Positions 1 through 24,310 of a stretch of DNA of 32,469 bases are shown one piece after another. Under the pieces are notes generated by a model. It did not search any database. It saw only the letters and a program-made list of their open reading frames with translations, and was not told the origin of the DNA. The stretch is from contig CAJFHG010000035.1 in assembly GCA_904379015.1 (NCBI GenBank), positions 1-32,469 on the forward strand, given 5' to 3'. Position numbers and translations under genes: made by a program. The stretch is from Candidatus Paralachnospira caecorum (lineage in GTDB: Bacteria; Bacillota; Clostridia; Lachnospirales; Lachnospiraceae). How positions within the stretch are numbered: position 1 is the stretch's first letter; each line of letters starts with the position of its first letter.

Positions 1-971
1 AGCACTACGACTCCCTTCTTCTCCTCCACATAGATATTGGAAGCTCCCACTCCCTCATCCACATCCAGGGTCTCCATCCGCAGCTCTTCGCCTTCCCACA
101 CCGGGCGGTACAGGCGGGTGCATTTGTCCCCGTCACGGCTGCAGGACAGGATCACCGGCGCTCCTCCGCACATCCCGCTCCAGATCGCGTGGCCGAACCG
201 GATCGGCTCGTCCGCGGTGCAGCTCCAGCCCGTCTTCTCCTTCTTGAACACATTCATATGGTCCCCGTGGAAGGGCGCGATGCACACCATCTCGTCCATC
301 CCGTCGCCGTCCACGTCATACATGCACAGGTCGCTCACCGGTTCCCCGCTCAGCTTCTGCACGCCTCCGTTCCCGTCGATGGCCCATACGCCCTCGTTCC
401 CGCTGACCAGGATATAGGACCCTCCCTGCTTCTCATACGTATACATTCCGTGGTTCTTGAAGATCCCCTCGATCAGGGTCCTCTTCCCCGTCACCTGCAT
501 CTCCCCGTCCAGGGTATATTCATAGACAGAGCCCGGCTGGCTCCAGTCGTCCACAAACTCCTTGTCCCGGCACAGGGTCGCCGCGATCATCTTCCGGCTT
601 CCCGGCTTTCCCGTCAGGGCGATCCTGTGGACGAAGGGGATGTCCGCCACCAGCTTCACCTCCGCCTTCATCTCCGGGGCCGCCGCTTCCGGCAGGCGGC
701 AGCAGACCACCTGGGCTCCCCTGGAGTCAAAGACCGGGTAAAATCTCTGGATGGCCAGGAAGGCGCCGTTTTCCTCCGGAATGGGGATAATGGCCATGAC
801 GCCTCCGTCAAGGCCCGTTATTTTGGACACCTCTTTTGTCTCCGTGTCGATCATCACGATTTCGCCGTCCCGTTCCTCAGAGGCGCTGACACAGTATTTA
901 CGGCCGTTATATTCCATCACCGTAATGCTGTAGCACATGGAAAGGGCCGCCAGCTTTTCCTTTACTATCAT
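1..971 (-). CDS. FG-GAP/beta-propeller-like protein, C-terminus cut by window edge
   Basis: The reading frame is open from an ATG at 971 down to the window edge, giving 323 visible residues without a stop. The ATG follows an AAGGAG-type ribosome site about eight bases upstream. The protein has no signal peptide. It is built of short beta-rich segments with repeated Trp/Tyr-Gly patterns. Residues 219-227 (DVDGDGMDE) match the calcium-binding loop of FG-GAP/VCBS repeats found in beta-propellers. Other blade-like segments are near 38-60, 148-165 and 185-205. The lack of a secretion signal suggests a cytoplasmic protein, which is unusual for FG-GAP proteins. It lies downstream of the TIM-barrel gene in the same direction, across a 113-base gap holding a hairpin, so it may be the last cluster gene or a separate unit. 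Function is unknown. Confidence 0.75.
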   Translation of the reverse strand, partial: MIVKEKLAALSMCYSITVMEYNGRKYCVSASEERDGEIVMIDTETKEVSKITGLDGGVMAIIPIPEENGAFLAIQRFYPVFDSRGAQVVCCRLPEAAAPEMKAEVKLVADIPFVHRIALTGKPGSRKMIAATLCRDKEFVDDWSQPGSVYEYTLDGEMQVTGKRTLIEGIFKNHGMYTYEKQGGSYILVSGNEGVWAIDGNGGVQKLSGEPVSDLCMYDVDGDGMDEMVCIAPFHGDHMNVFKKEKTGWSCTADEPIRFGHAIWSGMCGGAPVILSCSRDGDKCTRLYRPVWEGEELRMETLDVDEGVGASNIYVEEKKGVVV

Positions 972-995
972 GGGAATTCTCCTTCTCAATGGTCA

Positions 996-1084: not shown

Positions 1085-2002
1085 TTACATTCCCGCCAGC
1101 TCAAAGCACCGGGTCAGGAACTCTCTTGCATTCTTTTCCTTGTTCCACAGGTTATCTCCGGCATGGCCAAGCACTTCGACCGCCACGGCCATATGCTTCA
1201 CACCCTCGGGCTTGTCATAGGAAGCGATCTTCTTCAGGATCTCCGCGCCGATCTCAGGAGTCAGGAAGCCTTCTGTCTTCCAGTCAGGCGCCTGTGCCAC
1301 GTCCATGTGCAGGTCTCCGAAGCAGGGATGATTGACATCCGTAATGGCATCGCACAGATGGAACTGTCCGATATAAGGGGCTACATACTCGATCGAATGC
1401 ATCAGATCCGTACCGCCCAGCGCTTCATGGGCGCTGTCCCAGTGAATAAACACATTGGGGCAGGCTTCATGGATCGGCGCAAACCAGATTCCGGTCTCCT
1501 TCATGGGACCGATCAGCTGTTTCTTGTAGGCGTAGCGGTCAAGGGGTTCGATGGTCAGGTTCATCCCCAGGCCTTTTACATAATTCGCCAGCTCCACGAG
1601 AGATTCTGCCATGACCTTTTTGGCCTCCGCGCGTTTTTCATCGCCCGGGTCATCACCGCTGGGTACGCCAAAATGCATGAACCCGCAGTCGGCCGCGTAA
1701 CCGGCATGCTCCTTGCACAGCTCAATGGCTTCTCTCCTGCGCCCTTCATCCAGGTCGCACAGAGAAAGCTTCCGCTCCTTCACGTAAGGCGTGGCAAAGG
1801 TCGTCGCCGTCAGCCCGTTCGCCTCCAGCGTTTCTCTTACATACATCCGGTTGTATCTGTCCCGGAAAGAAGGAAGCTCCACATTTTTGTAAAATCCGAA
1901 ATCCGCCGCCCGCTTCAGTACATCGAGCATCCGCTTCTCGTCGTCACGGTAAGGCATGAACATTTCCAGAAGATGCCCTGAAGGCACAATTTTCTGAGCC
2001 AT
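1085..2002 (-). CDS. TIM-barrel sugar-phosphate isomerase/epimerase-like enzyme
   Basis: This 305-residue protein belongs to the AP-endonuclease-2-type TIM-barrel family (xylose isomerase-like), which includes ketose epimerases, inosose dehydratases and 3-dehydroshikimate dehydratases. The expected divalent-metal ligands are visible as Glu152 (IEPLDR), Asp189 (HWDSAH), His215 (FHLCDA) and Glu276 (AVEVLGH). Length is normal. The ATG at 2002 follows AGGGAGG with good spacing. It is 18 bases downstream of the SDR stop, so the two are cotranscribed at the end of the transport/catabolic operon. An isomerase or dehydratase beside an SDR and a shikimate-dehydrogenase-like enzyme suggests work on a polyol, keto-sugar or cyclohexane-carboxylate intermediate. 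The exact substrate cannot be read from sequence. Confidence 0.85.
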   Translation of the reverse strand: MAQKIVPSGHLLEMFMPYRDDEKRMLDVLKRAADFGFYKNVELPSFRDRYNRMYVRETLEANGLTATTFATPYVKERKLSLCDLDEGRRREAIELCKEHAGYAADCGFMHFGVPSGDDPGDEKRAEAKKVMAESLVELANYVKGLGMNLTIEPLDRYAYKKQLIGPMKETGIWFAPIHEACPNVFIHWDSAHEALGGTDLMHSIEYVAPYIGQFHLCDAITDVNHPCFGDLHMDVAQAPDWKTEGFLTPEIGAEILKKIASYDKPEGVKHMAVAVEVLGHAGDNLWNKEKNAREFLTRCFELAGM

Positions 2003-2020
2003 AATCGTTTTCCTCCCTGT

Positions 2021-2782
2021 TTAAATCAAGAATGAACTGCTGATCCCGCCGTCCACGACCAGATCAATTCCGGTTATGAAGCGCGCCGCGTCCGAGGCCA
2101 GAAAGGCAGCCGCCATGCCCAGATCCTTTGTCTGGGTAAAGCCCCTCATAGGAGTCCGGTCTTCGATCTCCTTCAGACGTTCGGGTGTTTTCAGGTTCGT
2201 GTTTCTCAGCATATCCGTATAAACAAAGCCGGGATTCAGGCTGTTGACCCGGATGCCGTAAGGCCCCAGATCCCGGGCCAGGCTTCTGGCCAGGCCCTTC
2301 ATTCCGCTCTTACATACCGTATAAGCCTGTATCTCATGCATTCCCAAGATGGACGCCAGAGAAGAGATCAGGATGATGCATCCTTTTTTCCGCTCCTTCA
2401 TATGTCTCGCCACTTCCTGGGACAGCATGAAGGGCGCCTTCGCCTGAGTCGCGACGATCTCATCAAACTCTTCTGCAGTAAAATCGAAATAATCCTTCTT
2501 GTTATTGATCCCTGCCGTATTGACAAGGATATCCAGCGGCGCCTGGTCCTCCAGCATCTGGATAAATTCCGCGTGCTTTTCTGTCTCCGTCACGTCAAAT
2601 TTATACCAGCTGCATTTGTCTCCCAGCTTTTCGGCCGCTTCTTTCAGTTTTTCCTCGCGGCGTCCCACGATCACCACATGGGCGCCGGCGTCCGCCATCT
2701 CCTCGGCGATGGCAAAGCCGATTCCGGTGGCTCCGCCTGTAACCAACGCGGTCTTCCCCGCAAGTGAAATTTCCTGAAGCAT
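2021..2782 (-). CDS. Short-chain dehydrogenase/reductase (SDR)
   Basis: A classical 253-residue SDR. The N-terminal Rossmann motif TGGATGIG is at 15-22. An NTAGI variant of the usual NAG motif is at 88-92, the catalytic Ser at about 140-141, and the Tyr154-x3-Lys158 pair is intact. The C-terminal half has the PGFVYT region and a DGG near the end, as in 3-oxoacyl-ACP-reductase or gluconate-5-dehydrogenase-like enzymes. It most likely oxidises or reduces a hydroxyl group with NAD(P). The ATG at 2782 is preceded by AAGGAGGGGG, and only 12 bases separate it from the livF-like stop. It is cotranscribed with the importer, which suggests it processes the imported compound. Substrate unknown. Confidence 0.88.
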   Translation of the reverse strand: MLQEISLAGKTALVTGGATGIGFAIAEEMADAGAHVVIVGRREEKLKEAAEKLGDKCSWYKFDVTETEKHAEFIQMLEDQAPLDILVNTAGINNKKDYFDFTAEEFDEIVATQAKAPFMLSQEVARHMKERKKGCIILISSLASILGMHEIQAYTVCKSGMKGLARSLARDLGPYGIRVNSLNPGFVYTDMLRNTNLKTPERLKEIEDRTPMRGFTQTKDLGMAAAFLASDAARFITGIDLVVDGGISSSFLI

Positions 2783-2794
2783 TCAACCCCCTCC

Positions 2795-3502
2795 TTAATC
2801 CATGCCCAGATATACCCTCTGTACCTGGTCATTCTTCATCAGTTCCTCGGCGGTCCCCTCGATCACCGTCTCGCCCTCGGAAATCACATAGGCATAATCC
2901 GCGAAGGCCAGAGTCTTCTCCGCGTTCTGCTCGATGATCACGATCGTTACGCCCATTTTATTGATCTTTTTTACAAATTCAAAAATCTCGTCGACCAGCT
3001 TGGGCATAATACCCAGGGACGGCTCATCCAGGATCAGCAGCTGAGGATCGCACATCAGCGCCCGGCCAATGGCCACCATCTGCTGCTCGCCGCCGGACAT
3101 GGTGCCGGCAAGCTGATTCTTCCGTTCTGCAAGGATCGGGAAGATCCCGTAAATGGTATCCAGCTTTTCGGCGATCTTGCTCTTGTCCTTGACAGAATAG
3201 GCGCCCATCATCAGATTGTCATAGATACTCATCTTGGGAAAGAGATGACGTCCCTCCGGAACCATGCTGATCCCTTTCTGGACCATTTTATGGGACGGTA
3301 CACCGATCAGGCTCTCTCCCTTGTATGTAATCGTGCCGGACATTGCCGGAAGGACGCCCGTAACGGTTTTCAGCGTCGTGGTCTTCCCCGCACCGTTGGA
3401 ACCCAGGATCGCAACAACCTGGCCTTCTTCAACCTTAAACGATACTCCGTGAATCGCGGGCATCTTGGAATATCCCGATACTAAATCTTTAACGACCAGC
3501 AT
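2795..3502 (-). CDS. livF: LivF-type ABC transporter ATPase
   Basis: One of two ATPases of a branched-chain-amino-acid-type (HAAT) importer. The 235-residue protein has Walker A GSNGAGKTT near residue 37, the signature MSGGEQQ, and Walker B LLILDEPSLG, with the family ending of about 230-240 residues. An in-frame upstream extension to 3556 is possible, but the ATG at 3502 has a fitting GGGAGGTG ribosome site and gives the usual LivF N-terminus. The start overlaps the end of livG by 14 bases, indicating translational coupling. HAAT systems carry amino acids, but also amides, urea and aromatic or alicyclic acids, so the name marks the family and not the cargo. Confidence 0.92.
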   Translation of the reverse strand: MLVVKDLVSGYSKMPAIHGVSFKVEEGQVVAILGSNGAGKTTTLKTVTGVLPAMSGTITYKGESLIGVPSHKMVQKGISMVPEGRHLFPKMSIYDNLMMGAYSVKDKSKIAEKLDTIYGIFPILAERKNQLAGTMSGGEQQMVAIGRALMCDPQLLILDEPSLGIMPKLVDEIFEFVKKINKMGVTIVIIEQNAEKTLAFADYAYVISEGETVIEGTAEELMKNDQVQRVYLGMD

Positions 3503-4217
3503 TATGTCCACCTCCCAGGTATGCGTTAATGACCTCCGGATTGCTTGTAACCTCATCCGGGGTGCCTTCCATCAGTTTCTTTCCGGACACGATCACGACC
3601 ACCTTGCTCGAAACACTCATGACCACCTTCATGACATGCTCGATCATCAGGATCGTGATGCCTTTTTTGTTGATCCGGCGGATCAGCTCAATGGCCTCGT
3701 CACGCTCCACGCCGTTCAGGCCTGCCATCGTCTCGTCGAGAAGCAGAAGCTTCGGGTCTCCGGCCAGCGCGCGGGCGATCTCCAGACGCTTTTTCTGCAT
3801 AACATTCAGGCCGGAGGCCATCTTCTCATTGAGCTCGGACAGACCGCAGAAGGCAGAAATCTCTTTCGCGTACTCTGTCGCCTCGTAAACCTTGGAATGC
3901 TTCAGCAGCGCGCCGATCGTAATATTTTCCAGCACGGTCATGTTCTCCAGGGCCTGGGGGATCTGGTAGGTACGTCCCATTCCCAGAGCGCACGCCTGAT
4001 ACGCCTTATATTTGGTGATATCCTTTCCGTCAAAAATGATCTGTCCGGAGGTCAGGTCATGGGTACGGCTGATGGAGTTGAACAGCGTGGTTTTTCCGGC
4101 GCCGTTGGGTCCCACAACTCCGACGATGGTGCCGGCCTCGACGTCAAAGCTCACATCTTCATTGGCCTTCAGGCCGCCGAAGGCTTTTGTGGCATTTTTA
4201 ATTTCCAGAAGAGCCAT
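3489..4217 (-). CDS. livG: LivG-type ABC transporter ATPase
   Basis: The second ATPase of the HAAT importer, 242 residues. Walker A GPNGAGKTT is at 36-44, with a Q-loop region near 85-88. Walker B is LLLLDET at 157-163, and the switch His is in IEHVMK near 194. The signature segment reads LNVMQKKRLEIARAL (137-151) instead of LSGGQ. This Lys-Arg-rich form followed by MAGLN occurs in a known LivG subfamily, so I do not read it as inactivation. The ATG at 4217 follows AAAGGAGGT, and the livM-like stop lies within this ribosome-site region, so the genes are coupled. Confidence 0.92.
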   Translation of the reverse strand: MALLEIKNATKAFGGLKANEDVSFDVEAGTIVGVVGPNGAGKTTLFNSISRTHDLTSGQIIFDGKDITKYKAYQACALGMGRTYQIPQALENMTVLENITIGALLKHSKVYEATEYAKEISAFCGLSELNEKMASGLNVMQKKRLEIARALAGDPKLLLLDETMAGLNGVERDEAIELIRRINKKGITILMIEHVMKVVMSVSSKVVVIVSGKKLMEGTPDEVTSNPEVINAYLGGGHNAGR

Positions 4218-4218
4218 A

Positions 4219-5232
4219 CTAATTTACCTCCTTTGCCGCAGATTTGTTCTTTTTGAACAGCCTTGTCAGCTTTCCGCTGGTGAAAATGGAAATCAGGCCG
4301 TTGGGTATGAACAGTACGATCAGCAGACACAGCACGCCGTAAATGAACAGGTTCAGGCCGCTCAGCTGATTAAACAGCGCACGGGCATACTGGTTGATAA
4401 AGGTCATGATAAAGGCGCCCAGGATCGGCCCCCAGATGGTTCCGATGCCGCCCATGACCACGACCAGAACGATCAGCATGGAGTTACTCAGAGGCAGCAG
4501 GGAAACAGGGTCGATGTACTGGATATACTGTGCGTAAAGCGCGCCTCCGATGGATACGATGGCCGCGCTGATCATATAGGCCCACCGTTTGTAAAAGGTA
4601 GAATTGACGCCGGCGCTCTCCGCGGAATCCTGATTCGCGTTGATGGCGCGGCAGTAATAACCGAATTTCGATCTCTGGATCACTCTGGAAACGATCACAA
4701 ACACCAGCATAAACGCCAGGCAGATAAAATAAAACGGAATCCGGTTCTCAAACTGCAGCGTGTATAAAGGATTTGCGCCTCTCTGGAAGAAGCTGACACC
4801 GGTAGCGCCGCCGATCAGATCCCAGTTGGTGCAGATAATACGCACACATTCTACGATAGCCATGGTCGCAATGGCAAAATAATGGCCGCGGAGACGCAGA
4901 AGCGGATAACCGATCAGAAACGCCAGCGCCATACTGATAATCACGCCGACCCACATGGTGACCCAGGGCGTCATATTGAACCATTTCAGTCCCAGCGCCC
5001 CCACATAAGCGCCAATGGCGAAATACATGGCATGTCCGTTGGACACCTGCCCGGCATATCCGCCGATCACATTCCAGCCAATCCCCATGATCGCCCAGAT
5101 CACTGACAGACAGAGCGTGCTGACAAAGAACTCTCCGTGCGATATAACAGGAATCAGAGCCAGAATGATAAATACGATAATAACCTGCGTGACAAAACTT
5201 TTTTCTGTCTTGATTAATGACTTCAGCCTCAT
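4219..5232 (-). CDS. livM: LivM-type ABC permease
   Basis: Membrane permease of 337 residues with about ten hydrophobic segments. The typical LivM core is present: a GYAGQVSNGHAMYFAIGAY segment near the N-terminus, the LRLRGHYFAIATMA segment, and the coupling-region VVVMGGIGTIWGP motif. A GTG at 5241 is in frame, but the GGGAGG ribosome site points to the ATG at 5232, five bases after the livH-like stop. The N-terminus carries a short basic stretch (KSLIKTEK) before the first membrane segment. It pairs with LivH to form the transmembrane pore. Confidence 0.92.
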   Translation of the reverse strand: MRLKSLIKTEKSFVTQVIIVFIILALIPVISHGEFFVSTLCLSVIWAIMGIGWNVIGGYAGQVSNGHAMYFAIGAYVGALGLKWFNMTPWVTMWVGVIISMALAFLIGYPLLRLRGHYFAIATMAIVECVRIICTNWDLIGGATGVSFFQRGANPLYTLQFENRIPFYFICLAFMLVFVIVSRVIQRSKFGYYCRAINANQDSAESAGVNSTFYKRWAYMISAAIVSIGGALYAQYIQYIDPVSLLPLSNSMLIVLVVVMGGIGTIWGPILGAFIMTFINQYARALFNQLSGLNLFIYGVLCLLIVLFIPNGLISIFTSGKLTRLFKKNKSAAKEVN

Positions 5233-5237
5233 TCCTA

Positions 5238-6089
5238 TCACCTCCCGAACAATCCCTTGGGCTTAAATGTTACAATCAGCAGGAACACGATGCTGACCGC
5301 CATGTACTTGAAGGAAACGCTCAGATAGGTACCGGTGAACAGGTCGATCAGGCCCATGATCATGCCGCCGATAAAAGCGCCTCCGATACTTCCGAAGCCT
5401 CCGAGACATACGGCGATAAATCCGAAGATCATGAAGTTGGTACCGATGCTGGGAGTAAAATAGTAATAATAGGTCATGGCGCAGCCGCCCGCTCCCGCGA
5501 TGGCCGCGGAGATGCCGAAGGCGATCATATAAGCGGTCTGGGTATTGATGCCGACCAGTCCTGCCGCCTCCTTATCCTGTGAGGTCGCGCGGATGGCCTT
5601 TCCCATTTTCGTCCGGTTCATAAACCAGAAAAGCAGGCCGGTTACCACAAGAGAGGTTACGACCAGCACCATTTTCTCCTTGCTGATCGTGATGCCGCCC
5701 AGCGCAATATTACCGCTGATGATCTTTTCCGCGATACTCTTGGTCTGTCCGCCGGCGATCAGGATCATGCCGTTGGAGAGCACCATGCCGAGGGCGAAGG
5801 TCACAAGTCTTTGACCAAGGATCGGTCCCTTCAGCGCCTTTGCGATGATCGTTCTGTAAATAAGGAGACCAAATAAAAACATAGCCACGATAACAATCGG
5901 CATAGCCGCCAGAGGATCCCATCCCAGAGCCGCGTTGATAAAGAACGTTATGTACATGGCCACCATCATAAACTCGCCCTGAGAAAAGCTCAGGATGTTC
6001 ATAACACCCCAGACGAGTGCGATACCCATAGCCAAAAGGGCATATATTGTTCCCATGGTTAAGCCTTCATATAATACCTGTGCAAACAA
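5238..6089 (-). CDS. livH: LivH-type ABC permease, TTG start
   Basis: A 283-residue inner-membrane permease of the HAAT family with around eight membrane segments. It has the characteristic GTIYALLAMGIALVWGVM start and the GGFGSIGGAFIGG motif near the C-terminus that contacts the ATPases. The start codon is TTG at 6089, supported by an AGGAGGGG ribosome site seven to eight bases upstream. No ATG fits the conserved N-terminus as well. It is separated from the binding-protein gene by 125 bases containing a strong hairpin with a T-run, which probably lowers expression of the membrane genes relative to the binding protein. Confidence 0.92.
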   Translation of the reverse strand: MFAQVLYEGLTMGTIYALLAMGIALVWGVMNILSFSQGEFMMVAMYITFFINAALGWDPLAAMPIVIVAMFLFGLLIYRTIIAKALKGPILGQRLVTFALGMVLSNGMILIAGGQTKSIAEKIISGNIALGGITISKEKMVLVVTSLVVTGLLFWFMNRTKMGKAIRATSQDKEAAGLVGINTQTAYMIAFGISAAIAGAGGCAMTYYYYFTPSIGTNFMIFGFIAVCLGGFGSIGGAFIGGMIMGLIDLFTGTYLSVSFKYMAVSIVFLLIVTFKPKGLFGR

Positions 6090-6123
6090 TTAAGGCCCCT
6101 CCTTTCATCTTACTTTTCATTTT

Positions 6124-6176
6124 AAAAAGCAGGCAGAGGAATGGAAACACCATTGTCTCAATCATTCCTCTGCCTG
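6124..6176 (-). terminator. Terminator/attenuator between binding-protein and permease genes
   Basis: A perfect 14-base inverted repeat (arms 6130-6143 and 6163-6176, CAGGCAGAGGAATG and its complement) around a 19-base loop, followed on the minus strand by CTTTTTAAAA. It lies 38 bases after the binding-protein stop and well before the livH-like start. This placement is typical of a leaky terminator that gives excess binding protein over permease. Confidence 0.85.
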
Positions 6177-6214
6177 AAATCAGTCAGCTGACCATTCAGC
6201 ATTCAGGAACCATA

Positions 6215-7549
6215 TTATCTCTCATCCCAGTTCTTTGCCGGATAAGCCAGTTCCATGCCGGCGATCTCTTCAGGATAAATGGTATTCAGGATACCATCCA
6301 TGTACTGGATAATGATGGCTGTGCCGTATTCATTCTGTCCGTCTTCTGCGTATTTGTAGCCTTCCAGTCCGAAAGGATCATCCTCAGGATCCAGATCCAG
6401 GCCTGCGTGCAGCGCTTCCATGATGGCATCGCCGTCCGTGGAGCCCGCCTGGTTCGCCGCTATCGCGATCAGAACGCCGTCCCATACAGAGGTCAGCGTA
6501 TCGCCGATCAGAGTAATGCCCATGTCATCAGAGAAGAGCTTGGCAATATCCTGAGCCGCCTGATTGTCCATATCGGAATTCCAGCGGGATGTGGTCAGAA
6601 CATAATCGGAATCGCTTCCCAGGTTCAGCGTGAAGTCAGAAGCCATGAAGCCGCCTCTCTGTCCGAACAGCATCTTCGGGAAGTAGTTCTGCTCTTTGAA
6701 CGCGGACATGAACAGAAGCGCGTCTGCCGCGTAGGAGCTCATCATGACAACGTCTGCGTTCGCTTCCTTCAGTCTGAGTACTTCAGAAGTAACGTTTGTA
6801 GCGGTCTGGCTGTAGGAGATATTCTCAACGATCTCATAGCCGTGCTCTTTCGCGATTCTTTCCTCTACCTGCGCGATATTGGTTCCAAACTCGGAATCTT
6901 CGGAGCAGAGGGCAACCGTCTTGATTCCGGCGTCCTTCTCTTCATTCAGATAATCCAGATAATTGAAGGACTCTTCGATGAACTGATCATCGCCCGGGAA
7001 GGAACGGCCGAAATACTGATATCCGGCGTCTGTCAGGGTCATGGAGGTACCTTCGGAAATTACGGGCACGCCGTATTTCTCAGCAGCAACCATCGCTGTC
7101 TTTGTGGTAGCGGAAGAGAAGTTTCCGCACAGTCCGATTACGCCTTCCTCGGTGATCAGACGCTCCGCCTCACTGAGGGCTACATCCGCCGTACTCTGAT
7201 CGCCGACTACGAATTCGATCTTCGCTCCGCCCAGATTGGGAAGACCCTCATCCTCTGCGAAGGGAAGACTCAGATCGTCATGCTTGTTGTTGATCACGTC
7301 TTCAAAAATGTCCGCCAGTGCCTGGCATTCCTGTCCGGCCTGTACACCGAAACCGGTGAAGGAAACCATTAAGCCGATCTTAATCGTTTCGCCGCTGGCA
7401 CTGCTGTCATCGCCGGAGTCATCCTGGCCGGCCGCCTCCGTACCTGCCGCCTGCGTCGTGGTGTCGGCATCCTGGCCGTCTCCGCCGCCGCATGCCGCCA
7501 GTGAAAAGACCATAATCGCTGATAAACATACTGCTAAAAATTTCTTCAT
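6215..7549 (-). CDS. HAAT-type substrate-binding lipoprotein
   Basis: The extracytoplasmic receptor of the importer, 444 residues from the ATG at 7549, which has a GGGAGG ribosome site. The reading frame extends to 7603, but that adds 18 residues ahead of a clear lipoprotein signal. The signal is MKKFLAVC followed by a hydrophobic stretch and a FSLAAC lipobox with Cys20 as the lipidated residue. An acidic, Ser/Gly-rich linker follows (about 21-55), then the Peripla_BP_6 type I fold with IKIGLMVSFTGFG. The segment SSATTKTAMVAAEKYGVPVIS is typical of LivJ-like receptors. It determines what the importer carries, but cargo cannot be read directly. Confidence 0.92.
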   Translation of the reverse strand: MKKFLAVCLSAIMVFSLAACGGGDGQDADTTTQAAGTEAAGQDDSGDDSSASGETIKIGLMVSFTGFGVQAGQECQALADIFEDVINNKHDDLSLPFAEDEGLPNLGGAKIEFVVGDQSTADVALSEAERLITEEGVIGLCGNFSSATTKTAMVAAEKYGVPVISEGTSMTLTDAGYQYFGRSFPGDDQFIEESFNYLDYLNEEKDAGIKTVALCSEDSEFGTNIAQVEERIAKEHGYEIVENISYSQTATNVTSEVLRLKEANADVVMMSSYAADALLFMSAFKEQNYFPKMLFGQRGGFMASDFTLNLGSDSDYVLTTSRWNSDMDNQAAQDIAKLFSDDMGITLIGDTLTSVWDGVLIAIAANQAGSTDGDAIMEALHAGLDLDPEDDPFGLEGYKYAEDGQNEYGTAIIIQYMDGILNTIYPEEIAGMELAYPAKNWDER

Positions 7550-7573
7550 ATATGAACCTCCCTTTTTGATATA

Positions 7574-7621
7574 AAAAACGGGAACCGCCGTCTTCTCCTT
7601 CACCCGGCAGCCCCCGTTTTT
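7574..7621 (-). terminator. Terminator/attenuator upstream of the binding-protein gene
   Basis: On the minus strand, outer arms AAAAACGGG (7613-7621) and CCCGTTTTT (7574-7582) enclose a further eight pairs, three of them G-U, making a stem of about 17 pairs. The T-run lies at the end of the 3' arm. It sits 17 bases after the aminotransferase stop and 24 bases before the receptor start, so readthrough here sets how much transporter is made from the upstream promoter. Confidence 0.75.
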
Positions 7622-7638
7622 GTTTCTGGTTCTGCCGT

Positions 7639-8925
7639 TTACAGGGCCGCGATTTCCGCGGATGCCTGAAGGAACTTGTCAACCTCCTCCTTAGAGTTGC
7701 AGTGAATCGGTGATACGCGGATCACGCCGTCCAGGCCGAAGGATTCCACGATTCTCTTGGAATAATGGCTCGGAGACTTGCGCTCGAATACGTAAACTCC
7801 CCTTTTCACGTATTCTTTTACCGCTGATGTCACATCCATGTTGTCAAAGGTGATCGGAAGAATGAAATCTCTCTGTGTCAGATCCGGATTGTCACACTGT
7901 ACCGTCAGGCCCTTGATGGCACGCAGTCCGGGCAGCTTGTCTGTTCCCTCCAGCGCACGGTTCAGAAGCGCGCGCTCATGAAGCTCGATCCGGTTCATGC
8001 CCTCCACAAACAGATCTCTTCTGTTATCGCTTTCCAGATACTGAGAACCCAGCCAGCACACATAATCAACGATCGCGGAATAATTCGCGAACAGATGAGG
8101 CGCCGTAGATCCCAGCTCCCACTGGCCCAGAGGGTAGCAGAGAATCCTGTTGTGAGGCAGCACGGAACATCTGTCCGATACCCAGCCGATGCCGGAGCCC
8201 CGCAGGCCGAAGAATTTATAGGGCGCAAAATCCATCGCGTCGATTTCCAGCTCCTCTACGTTCACCGCCGCGTGAGGAATATGCTGAACCGCGTCCACGA
8301 CAATGTAGATGTCCGGTTTAATGGCCCTCGCCGCTTTTACGAAGGCGGGAATATCATTGACCGCGCCGGTAATGTTGCAGGAATACATGCAGCTCAGAAG
8401 CACCGTATCCTTGTCAACCAGACGCTCCACCTCAGATACGTCGATGCCGCCGGTGGCAGGGTTGCTCTGCATTACGCGCAGCTCCAGATTGTATTTCTCC
8501 GCGTAATACTGCACGGAATCAAATCCTGACGGATGCTCCAGACAGGACACGACCATATTTTTCCCGGGGATCGCGCCCGCGATCGCGCCGATGATATTGA
8601 ACATGGTCTGAGATGCGGAAAGCATCGTAATAATGGATCCCTTATCCGTACCAAAAATCGTCCTCAGATCCTCATAGCCTTTATCCACATAAGCGCCCTG
8701 GATATCGGCCTGCTTCTGATGACGGCCGGGGCAGTCGGGATTTGTGTCCACTTTTACGGACTCGGCGCAGGCTTTCAGCCTCAGAGATCCGCCTGAATTT
8801 TCAAAAAATACCCTTTCGCCGAAATCATCATGATCGATGTTGCAGAAGCGGTCCCGCACCTGCTTCTGGATCTCGTCAGAAAACATCAGGCCCTGCGGAT
8901 AATCGTTCGGATTAATAATTCCCAT
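7639..8925 (-). CDS. Class V aminotransferase-fold PLP enzyme
   Basis: A 428-residue PLP enzyme of the class V family (cysteine desulfurase, isopenicillin-N-epimerase-like and kynureninase-like proteins). The PLP-binding Asp211-x2-Gln214-His215 motif (VVDAVQHIPH) and the Schiff-base Lys237 in FAPYKFFG are visible. SASQTMFN near 103-110 matches the phosphate-binding loop. The N-terminal part (VFFENSGGS) is like the YFDNAATT start of the family. The ATG at 8925 follows AAGGAG and lies 13 bases after the preceding stop. It could remove an amino group, cleave a C-S or C-C bond, or epimerise. Its place with an importer and dehydrogenases favours a catabolic role on an amino-bearing substrate. Confidence 0.88.
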   Translation of the reverse strand: MGIINPNDYPQGLMFSDEIQKQVRDRFCNIDHDDFGERVFFENSGGSLRLKACAESVKVDTNPDCPGRHQKQADIQGAYVDKGYEDLRTIFGTDKGSIITMLSASQTMFNIIGAIAGAIPGKNMVVSCLEHPSGFDSVQYYAEKYNLELRVMQSNPATGGIDVSEVERLVDKDTVLLSCMYSCNITGAVNDIPAFVKAARAIKPDIYIVVDAVQHIPHAAVNVEELEIDAMDFAPYKFFGLRGSGIGWVSDRCSVLPHNRILCYPLGQWELGSTAPHLFANYSAIVDYVCWLGSQYLESDNRRDLFVEGMNRIELHERALLNRALEGTDKLPGLRAIKGLTVQCDNPDLTQRDFILPITFDNMDVTSAVKEYVKRGVYVFERKSPSHYSKRIVESFGLDGVIRVSPIHCNSKEEVDKFLQASAEIAAL

Positions 8926-8938
8926 GATTCCTATCTCC

Positions 8939-9949
8939 TTATTTGTTGTCGGGATCCAGGATGGTTCCCTTGATGAACTCGTCTGCCAGCTTGCCGTCCT
9001 TCAGAATCACATTTCCGTCTACCGTAAGGGTGGGATTTCTGAATACACAGTCAAGGTGAGACGCGCAGTTATTGGTTCCGGCAAAGCCTCTGTCATCGCC
9101 GACTCCGAAATGCACGGTGCCGTAGCAGCCTTCATCCTCCAGCATTCTGCCGGTCAGGTCACAGGCAGGATTCATTCCGATGCCGATTTCACCGATATGA
9201 TACTGCTCGCCGTTCTTATAGGTCGCGCTCAGGTCATCAAGGATCTTTTTGAAAATCTCAGCCTGTTCTCCGCCGGAGATTCCCACGATCTTGCTTCCCT
9301 TGATATCAAACCGGATCGGCTCCTTGATCAGGCCCAGCAGGGGATGAGGAATCGAACCGTCTATGTAGGCCACGCCTTCCATGGTGCCGTCGTTTGCTCC
9401 GATCGCGCACTCAATATCGGGCGGTGAAGAAGACTGGCCGGGGACAATGCTGCGGCCATACTGGGGCAGATTGATCCTTCCGGTAATATCCGCTGTAACA
9501 TGCGTTCCCGAAGGCGTGGTGATTTCCACCTTGCTCCCCTGGAAAACCTTCGCGACACGGTCCATGACCTCGCCCATTCCGATAAAATCCGCGTACAGAC
9601 CGCCGCTCTCCAGCATACGCTGATCGAAATCCGAGCAGTTCAGATCTCGGGCTCCGTTGGCGCACGCATTCCGCTTCGCGTCTGTGGAGGAAATTGAGAA
9701 TGTAGTAGGACGGAAAATAACGTCCGCCGCCATCATGGCCGCTGCCACCAGCGCCGTCGGCTCCTCGCCGTGGGTCGTCTGGGTAGGCATCATGATCAGA
9801 CTTCTTTCAGGATACTCCTCTGCGGCATCCCACAGCGCCTGGGCGATGGGAAGCGCGTCCGGGTCAGTGATGATCAGGATCTTTTCATCCTTTTTACACT
9901 GAGCGCATACATCAAGAAGTGTCTGACAAGCTTTGTAGATCTTCTTCAT
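8939..9949 (-). CDS. M29 aminopeptidase/NicX-family metalloenzyme
   Basis: This 336-residue protein resembles the family containing thermophilic M29 aminopeptidases and 2,5-dihydroxypyridine 5,6-dioxygenase NicX. The metal-binding region is visible near the C-terminus: a conserved GEIGIGMNPACDLTGRMLEDE stretch (only partly shown here by its ends, residues 253-273), then His280 (VHFGVG) and His298-x-Asp300 (SHLD). The ATG at 9949 follows AAAGGGAG. The host appears anaerobic, so an oxygen-using ring cleavage is unlikely; a hydrolase or other metal-dependent reaction is more plausible. It is the second gene of the operon, 41 bases after the AroE-like gene. Annotating it as an ordinary peptidase would be unsafe, because most members of this branch lack a proven substrate. 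Confidence 0.8.
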   Translation of the reverse strand: MKKIYKACQTLLDVCAQCKKDEKILIITDPDALPIAQALWDAAEEYPERSLIMMPTQTTHGEEPTALVAAAMMAADVIFRPTTFSISSTDAKRNACANGARDLNCSDFDQRMLESGGLYADFIGMGEVMDRVAKVFQGSKVEITTPSGTHVTADITGRINLPQYGRSIVPGQSSSPPDIECAIGANDGTMEGVAYIDGSIPHPLLGLIKEPIRFDIKGSKIVGISGGEQAEIFKKILDDLSATYKNGEQYHIGEIGIGMNPACDLTGRMLEDEGCYGTVHFGVGDDRGFAGTNNCASHLDCVFRNPTLTVDGNVILKDGKLADEFIKGTILDPDNK

Positions 9950-9990
9950 AATTTTGCTCCCTTTCTTATATTTTATTATGACTACCGGCC

Positions 9991-10896
9991 TTAAAGACCA
10001 AAGTAGCTGTATACATTTTTCCTGGATTTCTCCATGGACTCCGGCGAGGGCTTGAATCCAAAGCAGAATTCAAAAATCTCCCCCAGCTGTCCCAGCATCA
10101 TATCGACGCCGTAGATCATCTTATGTCCTTTTTCCTTCGCCTTCGCGGCAAATTTTGTCATAGGCGGATTGACAATGTTTTCCATTACGACCGCCTCCGG
10201 TTTCAGCTTGTCGATAAAGCCGAGATATTCATAATCCGCCGGGAATCCGAACAGCCCCTGGGGCGTCGCCTGCATCAGGAAATCGCATCTGGCCGCCGCC
10301 AGATCCAGATTGTCATTGGTGTAAGGAAGATACTCGATTTCCATATCTGTATGCTCGCGGACCACATCGATCAAGTGCTGTGCCCTCGCGGCCGTGCGGT
10401 TGATCAGCGTGACCTTTCTGGCTCCGTGCTCCGCCATGCACAGCAGGATCACTCCCACAATGCTGCCGGCGCCGATGATGGCCACTTCCATGCCCTTCAC
10501 ATCCACGCCCGCGTTGATGATGGCCGCCATGTTTCCTTTTCCGTCGAAGCCGGCGCCGTGAAGCTTTCCGTCCTCATCCACTCTGACCGCGTTGACAGAA
10601 TTGAAAATCCTGGAATGCTCATCCACCACGTCCAGATAAGGAATGATCGCCGCCTTATGAGGCATGGTAATGGTAAAATGTCTCATCCCCAGCGTCTTGA
10701 AGGCTTTGATGAAATCTTCAAGGCCTCCCTCCGGGATCTCCACCGGCCACATGATCTCATCGATCCCGTTTCCCTCAAACAGAGGATTGTAGCCATAGGA
10801 ACCGCTGCTCTGTCCCATCGGACATCCGATCATGGGAAACAGCTTGGTGTTCATCGTGAACGTCAGATGCTTGTCAACATCGATATTCATTGCCAT
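9991..10896 (-). CDS. Shikimate/quinate dehydrogenase-like protein
   Basis: First gene of the operon, 301 residues. The AroE fold is clear. The N-terminal substrate domain contains ITMPHK with catalytic Lys81, NSVNAV with Asn102, and GFDGKG with Asp118. The NADP domain has GAGSIVG (about 142-148) and INRT, which usually signals NADP preference. The substrate loop reads GQSSGSYGYNPLF where biosynthetic AroE has G-H-S-x-S-P-x-x-H-N. A position usually occupied by Ser-Pro is changed, so the substrate may differ from shikimate. A GTG at 10905 lies inside the AGGAGG ribosome site; the ATG at 10896 has correct spacing. Linkage to an importer and a LacI regulator argues for catabolism, not aromatic amino acid synthesis. 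Confidence 0.88.
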   Translation of the reverse strand: MAMNIDVDKHLTFTMNTKLFPMIGCPMGQSSGSYGYNPLFEGNGIDEIMWPVEIPEGGLEDFIKAFKTLGMRHFTITMPHKAAIIPYLDVVDEHSRIFNSVNAVRVDEDGKLHGAGFDGKGNMAAIINAGVDVKGMEVAIIGAGSIVGVILLCMAEHGARKVTLINRTAARAQHLIDVVREHTDMEIEYLPYTNDNLDLAAARCDFLMQATPQGLFGFPADYEYLGFIDKLKPEAVVMENIVNPPMTKFAAKAKEKGHKMIYGVDMMLGQLGEIFEFCFGFKPSPESMEKSRKNVYSYFGL

Positions 10897-10917
10897 TTTC
10901 GCCACCTCCTGTTTTTA

Positions 10918-10931
10918 TAAACTCGAGTTTA
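10918..10931. promoter_or_regulatory. LacI-family operator O1 (perfect palindrome)
   Basis: TAAACTCGAGTTTA is a perfect 14-base palindrome with a central CG, the usual form for LacI/CcpA-type sites. It lies 22 bases upstream of the AroE-like start and downstream of the predicted promoter, a position suited to repression by roadblock. A near copy is at 11129-11142. Confidence 0.8.
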
Positions 10932-10944
10932 GTTTTTTTGGAAA

Positions 10945-10995
10945 ATGAAAGAGAATCGCTGAATTTTTAACAAAATTAGCCTCCTTCTCTTTCAT
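10945..10995 (-). other. Long hairpin in the 5' leader of the catabolic operon
   Basis: Perfect 11-base arms (10945-10955 ATGAAAGAGAA and 10985-10995) enclose an inner imperfect stem (GCT with AGC, and A/T pairs). The predicted transcript starts near 11014, so this structure would fill much of the leader. It ends 13 bases before operator O1. It could be an RNA control element or a binding site; no known riboswitch class is recognised. Confidence 0.55.
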
Positions 10996-11021
10996 GCTTT
11001 CAGTGTTTATCCTATGTCTCT

Positions 11022-11050
11022 GTTTTAGCATAATCACATTTTTCTGTCAA
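11022..11050 (-). promoter_or_regulatory. Promoter of the catabolic/transport operon
   Basis: On the minus strand TTGACA (11045-11050), a 17-base spacer ending in TGC, and TAAAAC (11022-11027). The perfect -35 and extended -10 compensate for the weaker -10. Transcription would start near 11014, giving a leader of about 110 bases that contains the hairpin and operator O1. Confidence 0.75.
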
Positions 11051-11128
11051 TCGTTTTTTGAAATTATGTGCATTCTATCTAACTCCTCCCCCTGATTTTT
11101 ATACAATTTATACAATTTTTATGTTTTA

Positions 11129-11142
11129 TAAACTCGTATTTA
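11129..11142. promoter_or_regulatory. LacI-family operator O2 (near copy of O1)
   Basis: TAAACTCGTATTTA shares with O1 a 13-base run, TTTTATAAACTCG, and differs in the right half. Its centre is 211 bases from that of O1, about 20 helical turns. It lies 24 bases upstream of the lacI -35, so it could serve a repression loop or autoregulation. Confidence 0.7.
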
Positions 11143-11165
11143 CCTTCTTTTAATTGGAAAAACTG

Positions 11166-11194
11166 TTGAATTTCACCGCCCGCGATGATATAAT
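11166..11194 (+). promoter_or_regulatory. Promoter of the lacI-type regulator gene
   Basis: TTGAAT (11166-11171), 17-base spacer and a consensus TATAAT (11189-11194). It is divergent from the catabolic operon promoter. Transcription would start about 25 bases before the GTG start codon. Confidence 0.85.
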
Positions 11195-11226
11195 TCAGGT
11201 ATGAATGAGGGGAAAGGAGTTTTAAC

Positions 11227-12345
11227 GTGGTTACTCGAAATGATGTCGCCAGACTTGCCAAGGTATCTCCGGCTGTTGTTTCCTATGTCATCAATAATTC
11301 CAACTATGTCAGCGAAGAAAAACGCCAGGCCGTGCTGGCCGCCATCGAAAAGCTGAATTACATACCCAATCAGAACGCGAAGAATCTGCGCCAGGGGCGT
11401 ACCCATATGATCGCGGTGGTGCGCGGCTCCCAGCAGAACGATATGTTCAACGACCTGCTTTTTTATCTGGAAAATATCGCCAATTCCCGCGGTTATCACA
11501 TCGCGCTGATCACTGTTTTAAAAACAAAGGATTATTACGCGACGGAGGATTTTGTGGACACTCTGATCAGCCGTCATTATGACGCGGTCTTCGTCGCCAA
11601 CAGCTCACTCACCGAGCAGCAGCTGAACAGGCTGTCGAAAAGCGGCGCGAAGGTCCTGCTTTTTGTTACCCGTGATTATTATATTCTGGATTCTTCCATC
11701 AGCCGGATCGTCCCCCATTACCGGATGGGGGTAAAAAACATTGTCAACCGTCTGATCGAGCTGGGGCACCGGCGGATCTCCATTCTGCCTAACCTGTCCT
11801 ATCCCAAGGATCAGCACAGCGTCAGCAATCACCGTTTCGCGGGATACATGGACGCGCTTATGGATCATCAGCTTGCTCTGAACATGCAGTATGTACCGTC
11901 GTCCTGTCAGAATCTGTCTGATGTCGCCGATTTTGTATACCGCATGTTTGACCCTTCCGTCACCCCGGATCCGCCTACCGCCATCTGCGCGGACGAGCCC
12001 TTCGTGGTGGCTACGGTCCTGAAGCAGCTTGTCTCCATGGGGATCCGGGTACCTGAGGAGGTTTCCCTGGTCTGCTTCAGTAATTCGACTCTGGCTACGG
12101 TCACCACGCCGGAGCTGACTGCCGTCGGCTTTGATCCCAACGAGTTCGCCTCTGTTTCCATGGAAATGATGGAGAACCTGATCAACGGCAATTCCAGCCA
12201 GACCCGGATCATCGATCTGAATTACTACAAACGCAGCAGCGTCGCGCCTCCGCCTTCCCGGAGGCCAAAGGCAAAGCTGCCCGAAACCTATCAATCCCAT
12301 TCCGGCCGCTCCGCGGCGGAACCATCAAAGGAGGAACTGCAATGA
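11227..12345 (+). CDS. LacI/GalR-family transcriptional regulator
   Basis: A 372-residue regulator. The N-terminal LacI helix-turn-helix spans about residues 3-50 ([21 protein letters not shown]), followed by the hinge helix ([12 protein letters not shown]) and a periplasmic-binding-protein-like effector domain (about 60-325). The C-terminal 40-45 residues are rich in Pro, Ser and Lys and go beyond the usual family end. The start is GTG at 11227, with AAAGGAG seven bases upstream. It is divergent from the AroE-like/transport operon, and two matching CG-centred palindromes lie between them. It therefore very likely represses that operon and responds to its substrate or an early intermediate. 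Its stop overlaps the aldo/keto reductase start by four bases. Confidence 0.92.
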
Positions 12346-13463
12346 ACGCAAAAAAACTGGGGTTCGGCCTGATGAGGCTTCCCTCTCTTGATCCCGACGA
12401 TCCTTCCAAAATCGATATCGAACAGGTGAAGCAAATGGTAGATGCCTTTCTTGAAAGGGGATTCACTTATTTCGATACGGCCTGGATGTACTGCGGCTTT
12501 CAGAGCGAATGCGCCGCGAAGGAGGCTCTGGTGGACCGCCACCCGAGGGACAGCTTTACCCTGGCGGACAAGCTGCCCGCACGCTTCCTGAAGACAAAAG
12601 AAGACCGGGACCGGATTTTCAATGAACAGCTGAAAAAGACCGGCGCCGGCTATTTTGACTACTACCTGCTCCACGACGTGGGCGCGGATCACTATAAGAT
12701 CTTCCAGGCCCTCGACTGCTTTACATGGCTCAGGGAAAAGAAGGAAGCCGGTCTCGTGAAGCACATCGGCTTTTCCTTCCACGACACTCCCGAGCTGCTG
12801 GATCAGGTCCTGACCGCCCATCCGGAGGCTGAGTTCGTCCAGCTTCAGATCAATTATCTCGACTGGGACAGCGCGGGCGTTCAGTCGCGCGCCTGCTATG
12901 AAACGGCCGTAAAGCACGGAAAGCCGGTGATCGTCATGGAGCCGGTCAAGGGCGGCACCCTGGCGAAGGTGCCCCAGTCGGTGGAGGAGCATTTCAAGGC
13001 TTATCATCCGGATATGTCCGTCCCTTCCTGGGCCATCCGCTTCGCCGCCGGCCATGACCATGTGATGATGGTCCTGAGCGGCATGAGCAACATGGAACAG
13101 ATTCTGGACAACACCGGCTATATGGCCGATTTCAGGCCTCTGGATGAAGAAGAGCTGCGGCTGGTCCGTCAGGCCGCGGACCTGATCAACGCCGACATCG
13201 CCATCCCCTGTACAGGCTGCTCCTACTGTACCGACGGATGTCCTCAGAACATCCCCATCCCCAGATACTTTTCTCTGTACAATGCCGACAGGCAGGAGAT
13301 CAAGGAGAAAACATGGAGGCCCCAGAGAGAATATTATTCCCGGCTCACCGATTCCTTCGGAAAAGCCAGCGACTGTCTGGAATGCGGCCAGTGCGAAGGA
13401 GTCTGTCCCCAGCACCTGCCCGTGATCCGGTATCTGAAGGAGGTCGCGGATTATTTTGAATGA
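12342..13463 (+). CDS. Aldo/keto reductase with C-terminal 4Fe-4S domain
   Basis: A 373-residue fusion. An AKR barrel occupies about residues 1-275, starting with [11 protein letters not shown], with the catalytic Asp/Tyr/Lys set expected around FDTAWMY and LADKLP. A bacterial ferredoxin-like domain carries two Cys clusters, [12 protein letters not shown] (about 287-298) and [12 protein letters not shown] (about 346-357). This architecture is common in anaerobes and implies electron exchange through Fe-S clusters as well as NAD(P)H. The ATG overlaps the regulator stop (ATGA) and has its own AGGAGG site, so regulator and enzyme are coupled. It probably works on the same substrate as the divergent operon. 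Confidence 0.9.
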
Positions 13464-14337: not shown

Positions 14338-14362
14338 GGCAACAGGAAAGGTGGCGATCATC

Positions 14363-14992: not shown

Positions 14993-15001
14993 GTCTTATT
15001 T

Positions 15002-22647: not shown

Positions 22648-22672
22648 GTAAAAGCCCTCCTATTCTTCCGGT

Positions 22673-23308: not shown

Positions 23309-23349
23309 TGTAAATACCTCCTGATTGATTTGATTATAAATTGATGTTT

Positions 23350-24153: not shown

Positions 24154-24179
24154 TCTGGTTCCTCCTCCTGACATTTTTT

Positions 24180-24194
24180 TAGCAATCCTTGCTA
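24180..24194. promoter_or_regulatory. Short palindrome in the methyltransferase leader
   Basis: TAGCAA and TTGCTA form a perfect repeat around TCC, just upstream of the ribosome site of the pterin methyltransferase gene. It is a possible operator or small RNA hairpin. Confidence 0.4.
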
Positions 24195-24230
24195 CAAATT
24201 AAATAAGAGCCTTACGCTCACTCTGAGTCC

Positions 24231-24259
24231 ATTGTAACACGGGTAAATCCTGTTTTCCA
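24231..24259 (-). promoter_or_regulatory. Candidate promoter of the methyltransferase operon
   Basis: On the minus strand TGGAAA (24254-24259), 17-base spacer and TACAAT (24231-24236). The -35 is weak, which fits a promoter needing an activator bound upstream at 24290-24310. Confidence 0.5.
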
Positions 24260-24289
24260 TTTTCATAATTACCGATTTTTCTTCTGCCT

Positions 24290-24310
24290 TTTCCTACATT
24301 TTGTAGGAAA
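24290..24310. promoter_or_regulatory. Palindromic operator between pucR and methyltransferase genes
   Basis: Perfect nine-base arms TTTCCTACA and TGTAGGAAA with a TTT spacer. Its centre is about 76 bases upstream of the expected methyltransferase start and about 52 bases upstream of the pucR start. It is the best candidate binding site for the adjacent PucR-type regulator. Confidence 0.72.

What the first reader, a model, noticed from the sequence alone, without database searches (positions are those of the whole stretch)
1085..13463. Uncharacterised LacI-controlled uptake and oxidation pathway
Seen: one divergent pair of units encodes a HAAT importer, an AroE-like dehydrogenase, an M29/NicX-like metalloenzyme, a class V PLP enzyme, an SDR, a TIM-barrel isomerase and an Fe-S aldo/keto reductase. 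All sit around a LacI regulator with two matching operators. I know of no named pathway with this exact set. Inference: the substrate may be an amino- or acyl-bearing cyclic or polyhydroxy acid, for example a quinate/shikimate-like compound or its amide. The dehydrogenases and isomerase would process the ring or chain, and the PLP and metal enzymes would remove nitrogen or hydrolyse a bond.
Basis: partly seen in the sequence, partly recalled or inferred. Interest (0 to 1): 0.75.

Follow-up and report, generated by a model that had tools for sequence, protein, structure and literature searches.

The report
Alanine-releasing pathway linked to vitamin-C breakdown
A rare gut-bacterial gene set appears to import an amino-acid-linked sugar acid, split off alanine and feed the rest into a vitamin-C-type route, and one of its unknown proteins looks like a missing enzyme of ordinary bacterial vitamin-C breakdown.

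Summary
In detail: ten minus-strand genes (AroE-like, M29-like, class V PLP, HAAT importer, SDR, TIM barrel) face LacI and an Fe-S aldo/keto reductase across two operators found nowhere else in the genome as exact matches. Five genomes share the ten-gene order. Quinate/shikimate is not supported. Two clues replace it. (1) Alanine dehydrogenase lies in 4 of 9 related loci and the PLP enzyme's best solved relative is Fgm3, a retro-aldolase, so L-alanine is probably released. (2) The gene cut by the window's left end belongs to an unnamed propeller-like family ('IAU'), next to the TIM-barrel gene in 7 of 9 loci and near it in an eighth. Of 392 genomes of the order, 38 have the ascorbate lactonase UlaG, 37 IAU, 35 both. 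The three with UlaG but no IAU have the decarboxylase UlaD in the operon; none of the 40 IAU loci read has it. IAU is a strong candidate to replace UlaD. Best model: an alanine C-conjugate of an ascorbate-type acid (ascorbalamic acid is a candidate) is imported, loses alanine, is decarboxylated and enters the pentulose route. Substrate and all enzymatic steps are inferred.

The parts
3..989 (-). IAU: 5' part of a gene for an unnamed propeller-like protein (the contig ends inside it)
   Evidence: 65% to the whole IAU of L117
1085..2002 (-). ISO: xylose-isomerase-like TIM barrel, probably a ketose 3-epimerase-type enzyme
   Evidence: PF01261 6.1e-17; E152, D189, H215, E276 invariant in 7 of 7; Foldseek hits include Art22 isomerase, D-psicose/tagatose 3-epimerases and UlaE (model of moderate confidence)
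2021..2782 (-). SDR oxidoreductase
   Evidence: PF13561 7.8e-60
2795..3556 (-). LivF-type ATPase
   Evidence: PF00005 2.1e-34
3489..4217 (-). LivG-type ATPase
   Evidence: PF00005, PF12399
4219..5241 (-). LivM-type permease
   Evidence: PF02653
5238..6089 (-). LivH-type permease
   Evidence: PF02653
6215..7603 (-). HAAT substrate-binding lipoprotein
   Evidence: PF13458 7.8e-45; solved relative 8wch 1.3e-72, ligand not known to me
7639..8925 (-). class V PLP enzyme, probably an alanine-releasing C-C lyase
   Evidence: PF00266; best PDB hit Fgm3 8.7e-21; K237 invariant in 7 of 7
8939..9949 (-). M29-like metallohydrolase
   Evidence: E180, H280, H298, D300 invariant in 17 of 17, E254 in 15 of 17; E254 stands where NicX has H265
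9991..10905 (-). AroE-like dehydrogenase/reductase
   Evidence: PF08501, PF01488; K84, N105, D121 invariant in 8 of 8
10918..10931 (.). LacI operator 1 (perfect palindrome)
11129..11142 (.). LacI operator 2
11227..12345 (+). LacI-family regulator
   Evidence: PF00356, PF13377
12342..13463 (+). Fe-S aldo/keto reductase
   Evidence: PF00248 1.8e-44 and 4Fe-4S domains; 80% copy in L049

Best explanation
The operon takes up and degrades an amino acid whose side chain is an ascorbate-type C6 sugar acid joined by a C-C bond. Model: the HAAT importer brings it in; the M29-like hydrolase opens a lactone or lactam (inferred); the class V PLP enzyme breaks the Cb-Cg bond and releases L-alanine plus a 2,3-diketo-gulonate-like acid (inferred); alanine dehydrogenase, where present, takes alanine to pyruvate and ammonia; AroE-like, SDR or 2-hydroxyacid dehydrogenases reduce the keto acid (inferred); IAU decarboxylates it to a pentulose (inferred from its place in ascorbate operons); ISO epimerises the pentulose (inferred); an FGGY kinase and AraD lead to D-xylulose 5-phosphate (genes seen in the Amazonia operon). 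LacI represses the divergent unit through two local operators and senses the substrate or an intermediate (inferred).
For: Ten-gene order shared by 5 genomes. Alanine dehydrogenase (TIGR00518, 510 bits, cut-off 391.85, for L117) in 4 of 9 PLP/M29 loci. PLP enzyme nearest in the PDB to Fgm3, described as a PLP retro-aldolase (passage of PMC10367076). IAU next to ISO in 7 of 9 ISO loci and four genes away in an eighth, L069. In Amazonia the operon runs on ISO-IAU-FGGY kinase-AraD-FGGY kinase-Ald; G492 has ISO and IAU with UlaE, AraD, FGGY kinase and a YhcH/YjgK/YiaL-family gene. IAU in ascorbate operons: UlaG within 6 kb in 35 of 40 loci; both in 35 of 392 genomes; UlaD not found in the 40 loci and present in 3 of 3 UlaG operons without IAU.
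Against: Ald was not found in 5 of 9 loci; four of these (window, L047, L050, L051) end at contig ends and L049 was read 3 kb short of its contig's start. Downstream of IAU only two window-type operons could be read: Amazonia has FGGY and AraD, Egerieimonas a DUF1537 kinase and a 2-hydroxyacid dehydrogenase. The Tyr proposed as Fgm3's base is Phe (window) or Gly (paralogue) two residues after the PLP-lysine. The paralogue locus L116 and the distant Klebsiella ISO locus L070 (37%) have no IAU. One PLP/M29/Ald cluster (L115) lacks ISO and IAU and has glycerate kinase and PTS genes. PLP relatives in Caballeronia sit with amino-acid or dicarboxylate transporters (by eye). SBP relatives on plasmids sit with oxoprolinase-type genes in 3 of the 4 regions opened. 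IAU has no homology to a decarboxylase. No substrate was shown.
Confidence: 0.38

Rival explanations
1. The PLP enzyme acts on a smaller gamma-hydroxy or gamma-keto amino acid (for example a hydroxyglutamate type) giving alanine and a C2-C3 acid such as glyoxylate or tartronate semialdehyde; ISO then works like hydroxypyruvate isomerase, followed by 2-hydroxyacid dehydrogenase and glycerate kinase. IAU would be along for another reason.
For: 2-hydroxyacid dehydrogenase in L117, L047, L115, L049, L050 and in the Klebsiella ISO locus L070; glycerate kinase in L115, L058, L059; ISO weakly matches hydroxypyruvate isomerase (34 bits); PLP relatives beside plain amino-acid transporters (by eye).
Against: ISO is far below that family's cut-off (34 against 353); the three loci with glycerate kinase have no ISO, while ISO goes with IAU, AraD or FGGY kinases.
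Confidence: 0.22
2. N-linked sugar-amino acid (Amadori type) pathway: dehydrogenases and ISO free the sugar by beta-elimination, M29 or PLP handle the amino acid.
For: HAAT importer plus sugar enzymes; TIM-barrel lyases and a hydratase of 3-keto-glucosides are among the Foldseek hits.
Against: No Amadori deglycase appears among the family hits of the operon genes (not searched genome-wide); does not explain alanine dehydrogenase with a Fgm3-like enzyme, nor IAU.
Confidence: 0.1
3. Quinate/shikimate-like ring compound or its amide.
For: AroE-like fold and hits; catalytic Lys and Asp kept. The odds are raised from 0.05 to 0.07 because the S-x-S test depends on the alignment register.
Against: All shikimate/quinate dehydrogenase cut-offs missed; S-x-S not kept in the ungapped alignment, and in no register in the two paralogue rows; neighbours point to pentulose chemistry.
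Confidence: 0.07
4. IAU is not a decarboxylase but an accessory step of ascorbate breakdown (lactone, anomer or metal handling), and UlaD's step is done by some protein encoded elsewhere.
For: Only weak FG-GAP propeller matches. Four of 42 IAU genomes have a second OMPdecase-family match. PMC3219644 (passage) found the ulaABCDEF unit in all cases it examined.
Against: IAU stands in operons that hold the other ula genes but no UlaD; 3 of 3 exceptions go the expected way.
Confidence: 0.25

Closest known systems
L-ascorbate utilisation (ulaABCDEF/ulaG) and the yia 3-keto-L-gulonate route
   Same: Pentulose end: UlaE, AraD and FGGY-type genes with IAU; YiaL-family gene near ISO and IAU in G492. 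Routes as described in passages of PMC3219644 and PMC6958661.
   Different: The window operon has no UlaG, no PTS and no UlaD; import by HAAT; PLP and M29 enzymes added.
Fgm3 / UstD / kynureninase (PLP enzymes of Cb-Cg bond cleavage or formation)
   Same: Best PDB match Fgm3, UstD also listed; alanine dehydrogenase as neighbour in 4 of 9 loci.
   Different: Tyr near the PLP-lysine absent; substrate unknown; 133.8 bits against 352.35 for the nearest NCBIfam model TIGR01976.
M29 aminopeptidases and NicX
   Same: Sequence family and metal-ligand positions.
   Different: NicX His265 is Glu254 here; likely a hydrolase, not a dioxygenase.
5-ketofructose reductase / shikimate dehydrogenase (AroE family)
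   Same: Catalytic Lys and Asp retained.
   Different: Carboxylate-binding S-x-S not kept in the ungapped alignment; cut-offs missed.

Membership tests
NicX 2,5-dihydroxypyridine dioxygenase | Fe triad His265/His318/Asp320 (recalled; these numbers fit the aligned chain) | tested here: not met
   His265 aligns with E254; H298 and D300 kept; E180 and H280 present
M29 metallopeptidase | two-metal ligand set Glu, Glu, His, His-x-Asp (recalled) | tested here: met
   E180, H280, H298, D300 invariant in 17 of 17; E254 in 15, Gln in L062 and L063
Shikimate/quinate dehydrogenase | S-x-S substrate carboxylate site (recalled) | tested here: inconclusive
   S-x-G, S-x-A or T-x-A in 8 of 8 in the ungapped alignment; one residue later an S-x-S stands in 6 of 8
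Shikimate/quinate dehydrogenase | NCBIfam cut-off | tested here: not met
   best 133.6 bits against 252; TIGR00507 129.8 against 200.2
Class V PLP fold | PF00266 and PLP-lysine | tested here: met
   95.2 bits against 21.5; K237 invariant in 7 of 7
Fgm3-type retro-aldolase | Tyr near the gamma-hydroxyl as putative base (PMC10367076, passage) | tested here: not met
   Phe239 in the window, Gly in the paralogue at the aligned place; that this is the paper's Y225 (numbering off by one) is my inference
Fgm3-type retro-aldolase | alanine release | not testable with these tools
   only alanine dehydrogenase neighbours
Xylose-isomerase-like epimerase/isomerase | PF01261 and Glu/Asp/His/Glu metal site (recalled) | tested here: met
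ula ascorbate pathway (window operon) | UlaG lactonase and ascorbate PTS in the operon | tested here: not met
   none among the window operon genes; the genome's own UlaG lies on C8 beside another IAU
IAU as UlaD replacement | present in ula operons without UlaD, absent where UlaD is present | tested here: met
   UlaD found in 0 of 40 IAU loci (stretches read) and in 3 of 3 UlaG operons of genomes without IAU
[quoted passage not shown]
   no enzyme data

The most novel reading that the evidence does not exclude
The operon is a catabolic pathway for ascorbalamic acid (C9H13NO8, formally alanine plus dehydroascorbate) or a close C-alanyl vitamin-C conjugate: a PLP retro-aldolase frees L-alanine and 2,3-diketo-gulonate, and a new propeller-fold decarboxylase family, IAU, which also replaces UlaD in many ascorbate operons of this order, makes the pentulose.
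Probability: 0.17. Interest if true: 0.85.

Novelty: new variant of a known kind. Interest (0 to 1): 0.6.

Why it matters
It gives an unnamed gut-bacterial pathway a testable substrate class, and it names a candidate for the decarboxylation step in vitamin-C breakdown where UlaD is missing: of 392 genomes of this order searched, 35 of 38 with UlaG carry IAU, and UlaD was found in the operon of the other three. If right, a propeller-like protein without decarboxylase homology does the job of UlaD.

Tried and rejected
Relatives on plasmids: M29 27 records, PLP 158, ISO 8, AroE 451, SBP 157. I opened regions of 4, 5, 1, 5 and 4 of them; none that I read held the operon; three AroE regions (L120-L122) came without annotation and were not read further; the other records were not opened. 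IAU has no plasmid match. The one scan of named genomes, with the M29 protein, gave five loci. The ISO model found 1 of 392 genomes of the order at E 1e-60 (own) and 2 of 398 of the phylum at 1e-50 (own and G492). The AlphaFold model of the SBP is weak (pLDDT 63) and was not used; the ISO model (71.8) is used for fold class only. Ubiquitin hits of the M29 profile are taken as repeat artefacts.

Papers: 8WCH in none. Ascorbalamic acid in 11 (listing); passages read in PMC10563677 and PMC9229034, where it is a putative metabolite name; its structure as an alanine conjugate of ascorbate is recalled. I saw no paper on UlaD-less ula operons in the listings (10; 20 of 29; 6; 4; 10 of 32); titles and abstract starts only. 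Passages read: PMC3219644 (ulaABCDEF unit found in all cases it examined), PMC9482736 (complete ula operon predicted in segmented filamentous bacteria), PMC6958661 (yia route), PMC10367076 and PMC13397446 (Fgm3, UstD). Searches were listings.
Full report
WHAT IS THERE. The window is a whole contig (C35) of a 2.59-Mb, 55-contig genome. Of five named loci found with the M29 protein the nearest is Candidatus Egerieimonas intestinavium, 92%. On the minus strand run AroE-like (9991-10905), M29-like (8939-9949), class V PLP (7639-8925), binding protein (6215-7603), LivH, LivM, LivG, LivF, SDR (2021-2782) and a TIM barrel, 'ISO' (1085-2002); on the plus strand LacI (11227-12345) and an Fe-S aldo/keto reductase (12342-13463). 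The contig starts inside one more minus-strand gene (3-989), here called IAU. The two operators are confirmed and local: the exact pattern occurs nowhere else in the genome held, although with two mismatches it is no commoner than its control.

SYNTENY. The order AroE-M29-PLP-SBP-LivHMGF-SDR-ISO is shared by five genomes: the window's, L042/L117 (Egerieimonas), L043/L050, L044/L049 and L045/L144 (Amazonia massiliensis) (each pair is one contig read twice, judged by equal contig length). Egerieimonas has alanine dehydrogenase between AroE and M29; L044 has two binding-protein genes. LacI is divergent in L043 and L044, on the same strand in L045 (32% alike), and out of reach in L042; the aldo/keto reductase recurs only in L044/L049. 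A second, diverged version exists in G000 (split over C52, LacI-M29-PLP, and C49, SBP-LivHMGF-SDR-AroE-ISO), in G004 (L051, whole, with a second M29 copy) and in Egerieimonas (L116, without SDR). Identity between the two versions in G000: SBP 26%, LivH 29%, LivM 32%, LacI 35%, AroE 38%, LivG 39%, PLP 44%, LivF 46%, M29 50%, SDR 55%, ISO 71%, IAU 98% over 324 residues. So the front end differs while the back end is shared: two substrates, one common intermediate (inference). C35 and C49 both end in these IAU copies (96% over 991 bases), which would explain the contig break. The ISO model hits 1 of 392 genomes of the order and 2 of 398 of the phylum at strict limits: rare.

ENZYMES. M29-like: E180, H280, H298 and D300 are invariant in 17 of 17 and E254 in 15. 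NicX's His265 aligns with E254, so a NicX-type dioxygenase is unlikely. AroE-like: Lys84, Asn105 and Asp121 kept in 8 of 8; the second serine of the carboxylate site is not kept in the ungapped alignment, though a slip of one residue would give an S-x-S in 6 of 8; all shikimate dehydrogenase cut-offs are missed. PLP: best PDB relative Fgm3 (8.7e-21), UstD further down. Fgm3 is described as a retro-aldolase, and UstD and kynureninase as working through a nucleophilic aminoacrylate (passages). Against a simple transfer: the Tyr suggested as Fgm3's base is Phe or Gly here. ISO: metal site invariant in 7 of 7; fold hits among ketose 3-epimerases, UlaE, IolE and 3-keto-glucoside lyases, in a model of moderate confidence.

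ALANINE. Alanine dehydrogenase lies in 4 of the 9 PLP/M29 loci read: L117 (TIGR00518 above cut-off), L116, L144 and L115. It was not found in the window, L047, L049, L050 or L051; four of these end at contig ends, and L049 was read 3 kb short of its contig's start. This and the Fgm3 kinship suggest that the PLP enzyme frees L-alanine.

IAU AND ASCORBATE. IAU has no Pfam family beyond weak FG-GAP repeats (best 0.0011). Among nine ISO loci it is next to ISO in seven (window, L009, L049, L050, L051, L117, L144), four genes away in L069, and absent from the stretch read in L116; the distant Klebsiella ISO locus L070 has none. In Amazonia ISO-IAU is followed by an FGGY kinase, AraD, a second FGGY kinase and alanine dehydrogenase; in G492 ISO and IAU stand with UlaE, AraD, FGGY kinase and a YiaL-family gene. 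IAU was found in 37 of 392 genomes of the order. All 40 IAU matches of that search outside the own genome were fetched: UlaG within 6 kb in 35, UlaE in 27, AraD/UlaF in 27, UlaA in 25, by BLAST to examples; the examples pass NCBIfam models (UlaG NF008688 622.7 against 306, UlaE NF009689, UlaA NF006919, AraD NF006047). UlaG was found in 38 of 392 genomes, 37 over the cut-off, G390 below it. The two sets share 35 genomes; hypergeometric p about 5e-44, without correction for kinship. IAU without UlaG: G081, G412. UlaG without IAU: G057, G094, G190, one genus; I fetched all three and all carry UlaD in the operon: L217 and L218 pass the subfamily model NF009832 (308 against 250) but not the UlaD equivalog NF009831 (260 and 258 against 294), and L216 is 89% identical to L217. 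tblastn with that UlaD over 50 loci, the 40, seven further IAU loci and these three, hits only the three. The OMPdecase family PF00215, which holds UlaD and PyrF (recalled; its power to find UlaD was not tested here), has one match in 37 of 42 IAU genomes searched, none in G069, two in 4 (G412, G081; weak in G212, G276). So IAU stands where UlaD is missing. I infer that it does UlaD's step or its equivalent.

MODEL. If IAU decarboxylates a 3-keto C6 acid and the PLP enzyme frees alanine, the imported compound is a C-linked alanine derivative of an ascorbate-type acid. Ascorbalamic acid (C9H13NO8 as printed in PMC10563677) has the sum formula of alanine plus dehydroascorbate; it is listed as a putative metabolite in rat faeces and in a plant-derived extract. 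That it is a C-alanyl ascorbate is recalled. Every enzymatic step is inferred; only gene content, order, operators, conserved residues and the IAU/UlaD pattern are shown.

AGAINST. The kinase differs between the two operons readable past IAU (DUF1537 in Egerieimonas, FGGY in Amazonia); L115 has PLP, M29 and alanine dehydrogenase with glycerate kinase and PTS genes and without ISO or IAU; SBP relatives of about 33% on plasmids lie with oxoprolinase-type genes in 3 of 4 regions opened and with a 'putative hydro-lyase' in 3 of 4; PLP relatives of about 50% stand beside amino-acid or dicarboxylate transporters (by eye). A published survey found the ulaABCDEF unit in all cases it examined (PMC3219644, passage). 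These leave room for a smaller gamma-hydroxy amino acid and for another role of IAU.

VERDICT. Observation confirmed; the quinate/shikimate idea not supported; a rare paralogous catabolic operon with an ascorbate-like back end; the IAU/UlaD exchange is the firmest and most testable new point.

Noticed in passing
window 14351-18284: GntR-TrkA_C regulator followed by an OpuA-type ATPase with CBS domain, a permease and a permease-OpuAC fusion: BusR-like control of a betaine-type importer (name recalled).
   Followed up: no
window 21613-28228: URO-D, B12-binding, pterin-binding, PucR-type regulator and RACo genes: looks like an anaerobic corrinoid methyltransferase system, perhaps fed by the importer nearby.
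   Followed up: no
L216, L217, L218 versus L176-L215: UlaD and IAU were not seen together in the ula loci of this order that I read.
   Followed up: yes
L048 and L052: A further M29-like paralogue (41-42%) with HAAT genes, beside frames that by eye are a C-N hydrolase and a GntR regulator: perhaps another unnamed amide pathway.
   Followed up: no
L114 and L119 (S. fredii and R. leguminosarum plasmids): AroE-like (about 30%), sugar isomerase, hydantoinase A/B, amino-acid ABC importer, RidA and an aldolase in one cluster.
   Followed up: no
L062:8980-9957 (Haladaptatus plasmid): M29-like protein (33%) next to TcuA, PrpF-type and tripartite tricarboxylate transporter genes.
   Followed up: no
L058 and L059: M29-like (38%) beside glycerate kinase, with a HAAT binding protein of 37% nearby.
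   Followed up: partly
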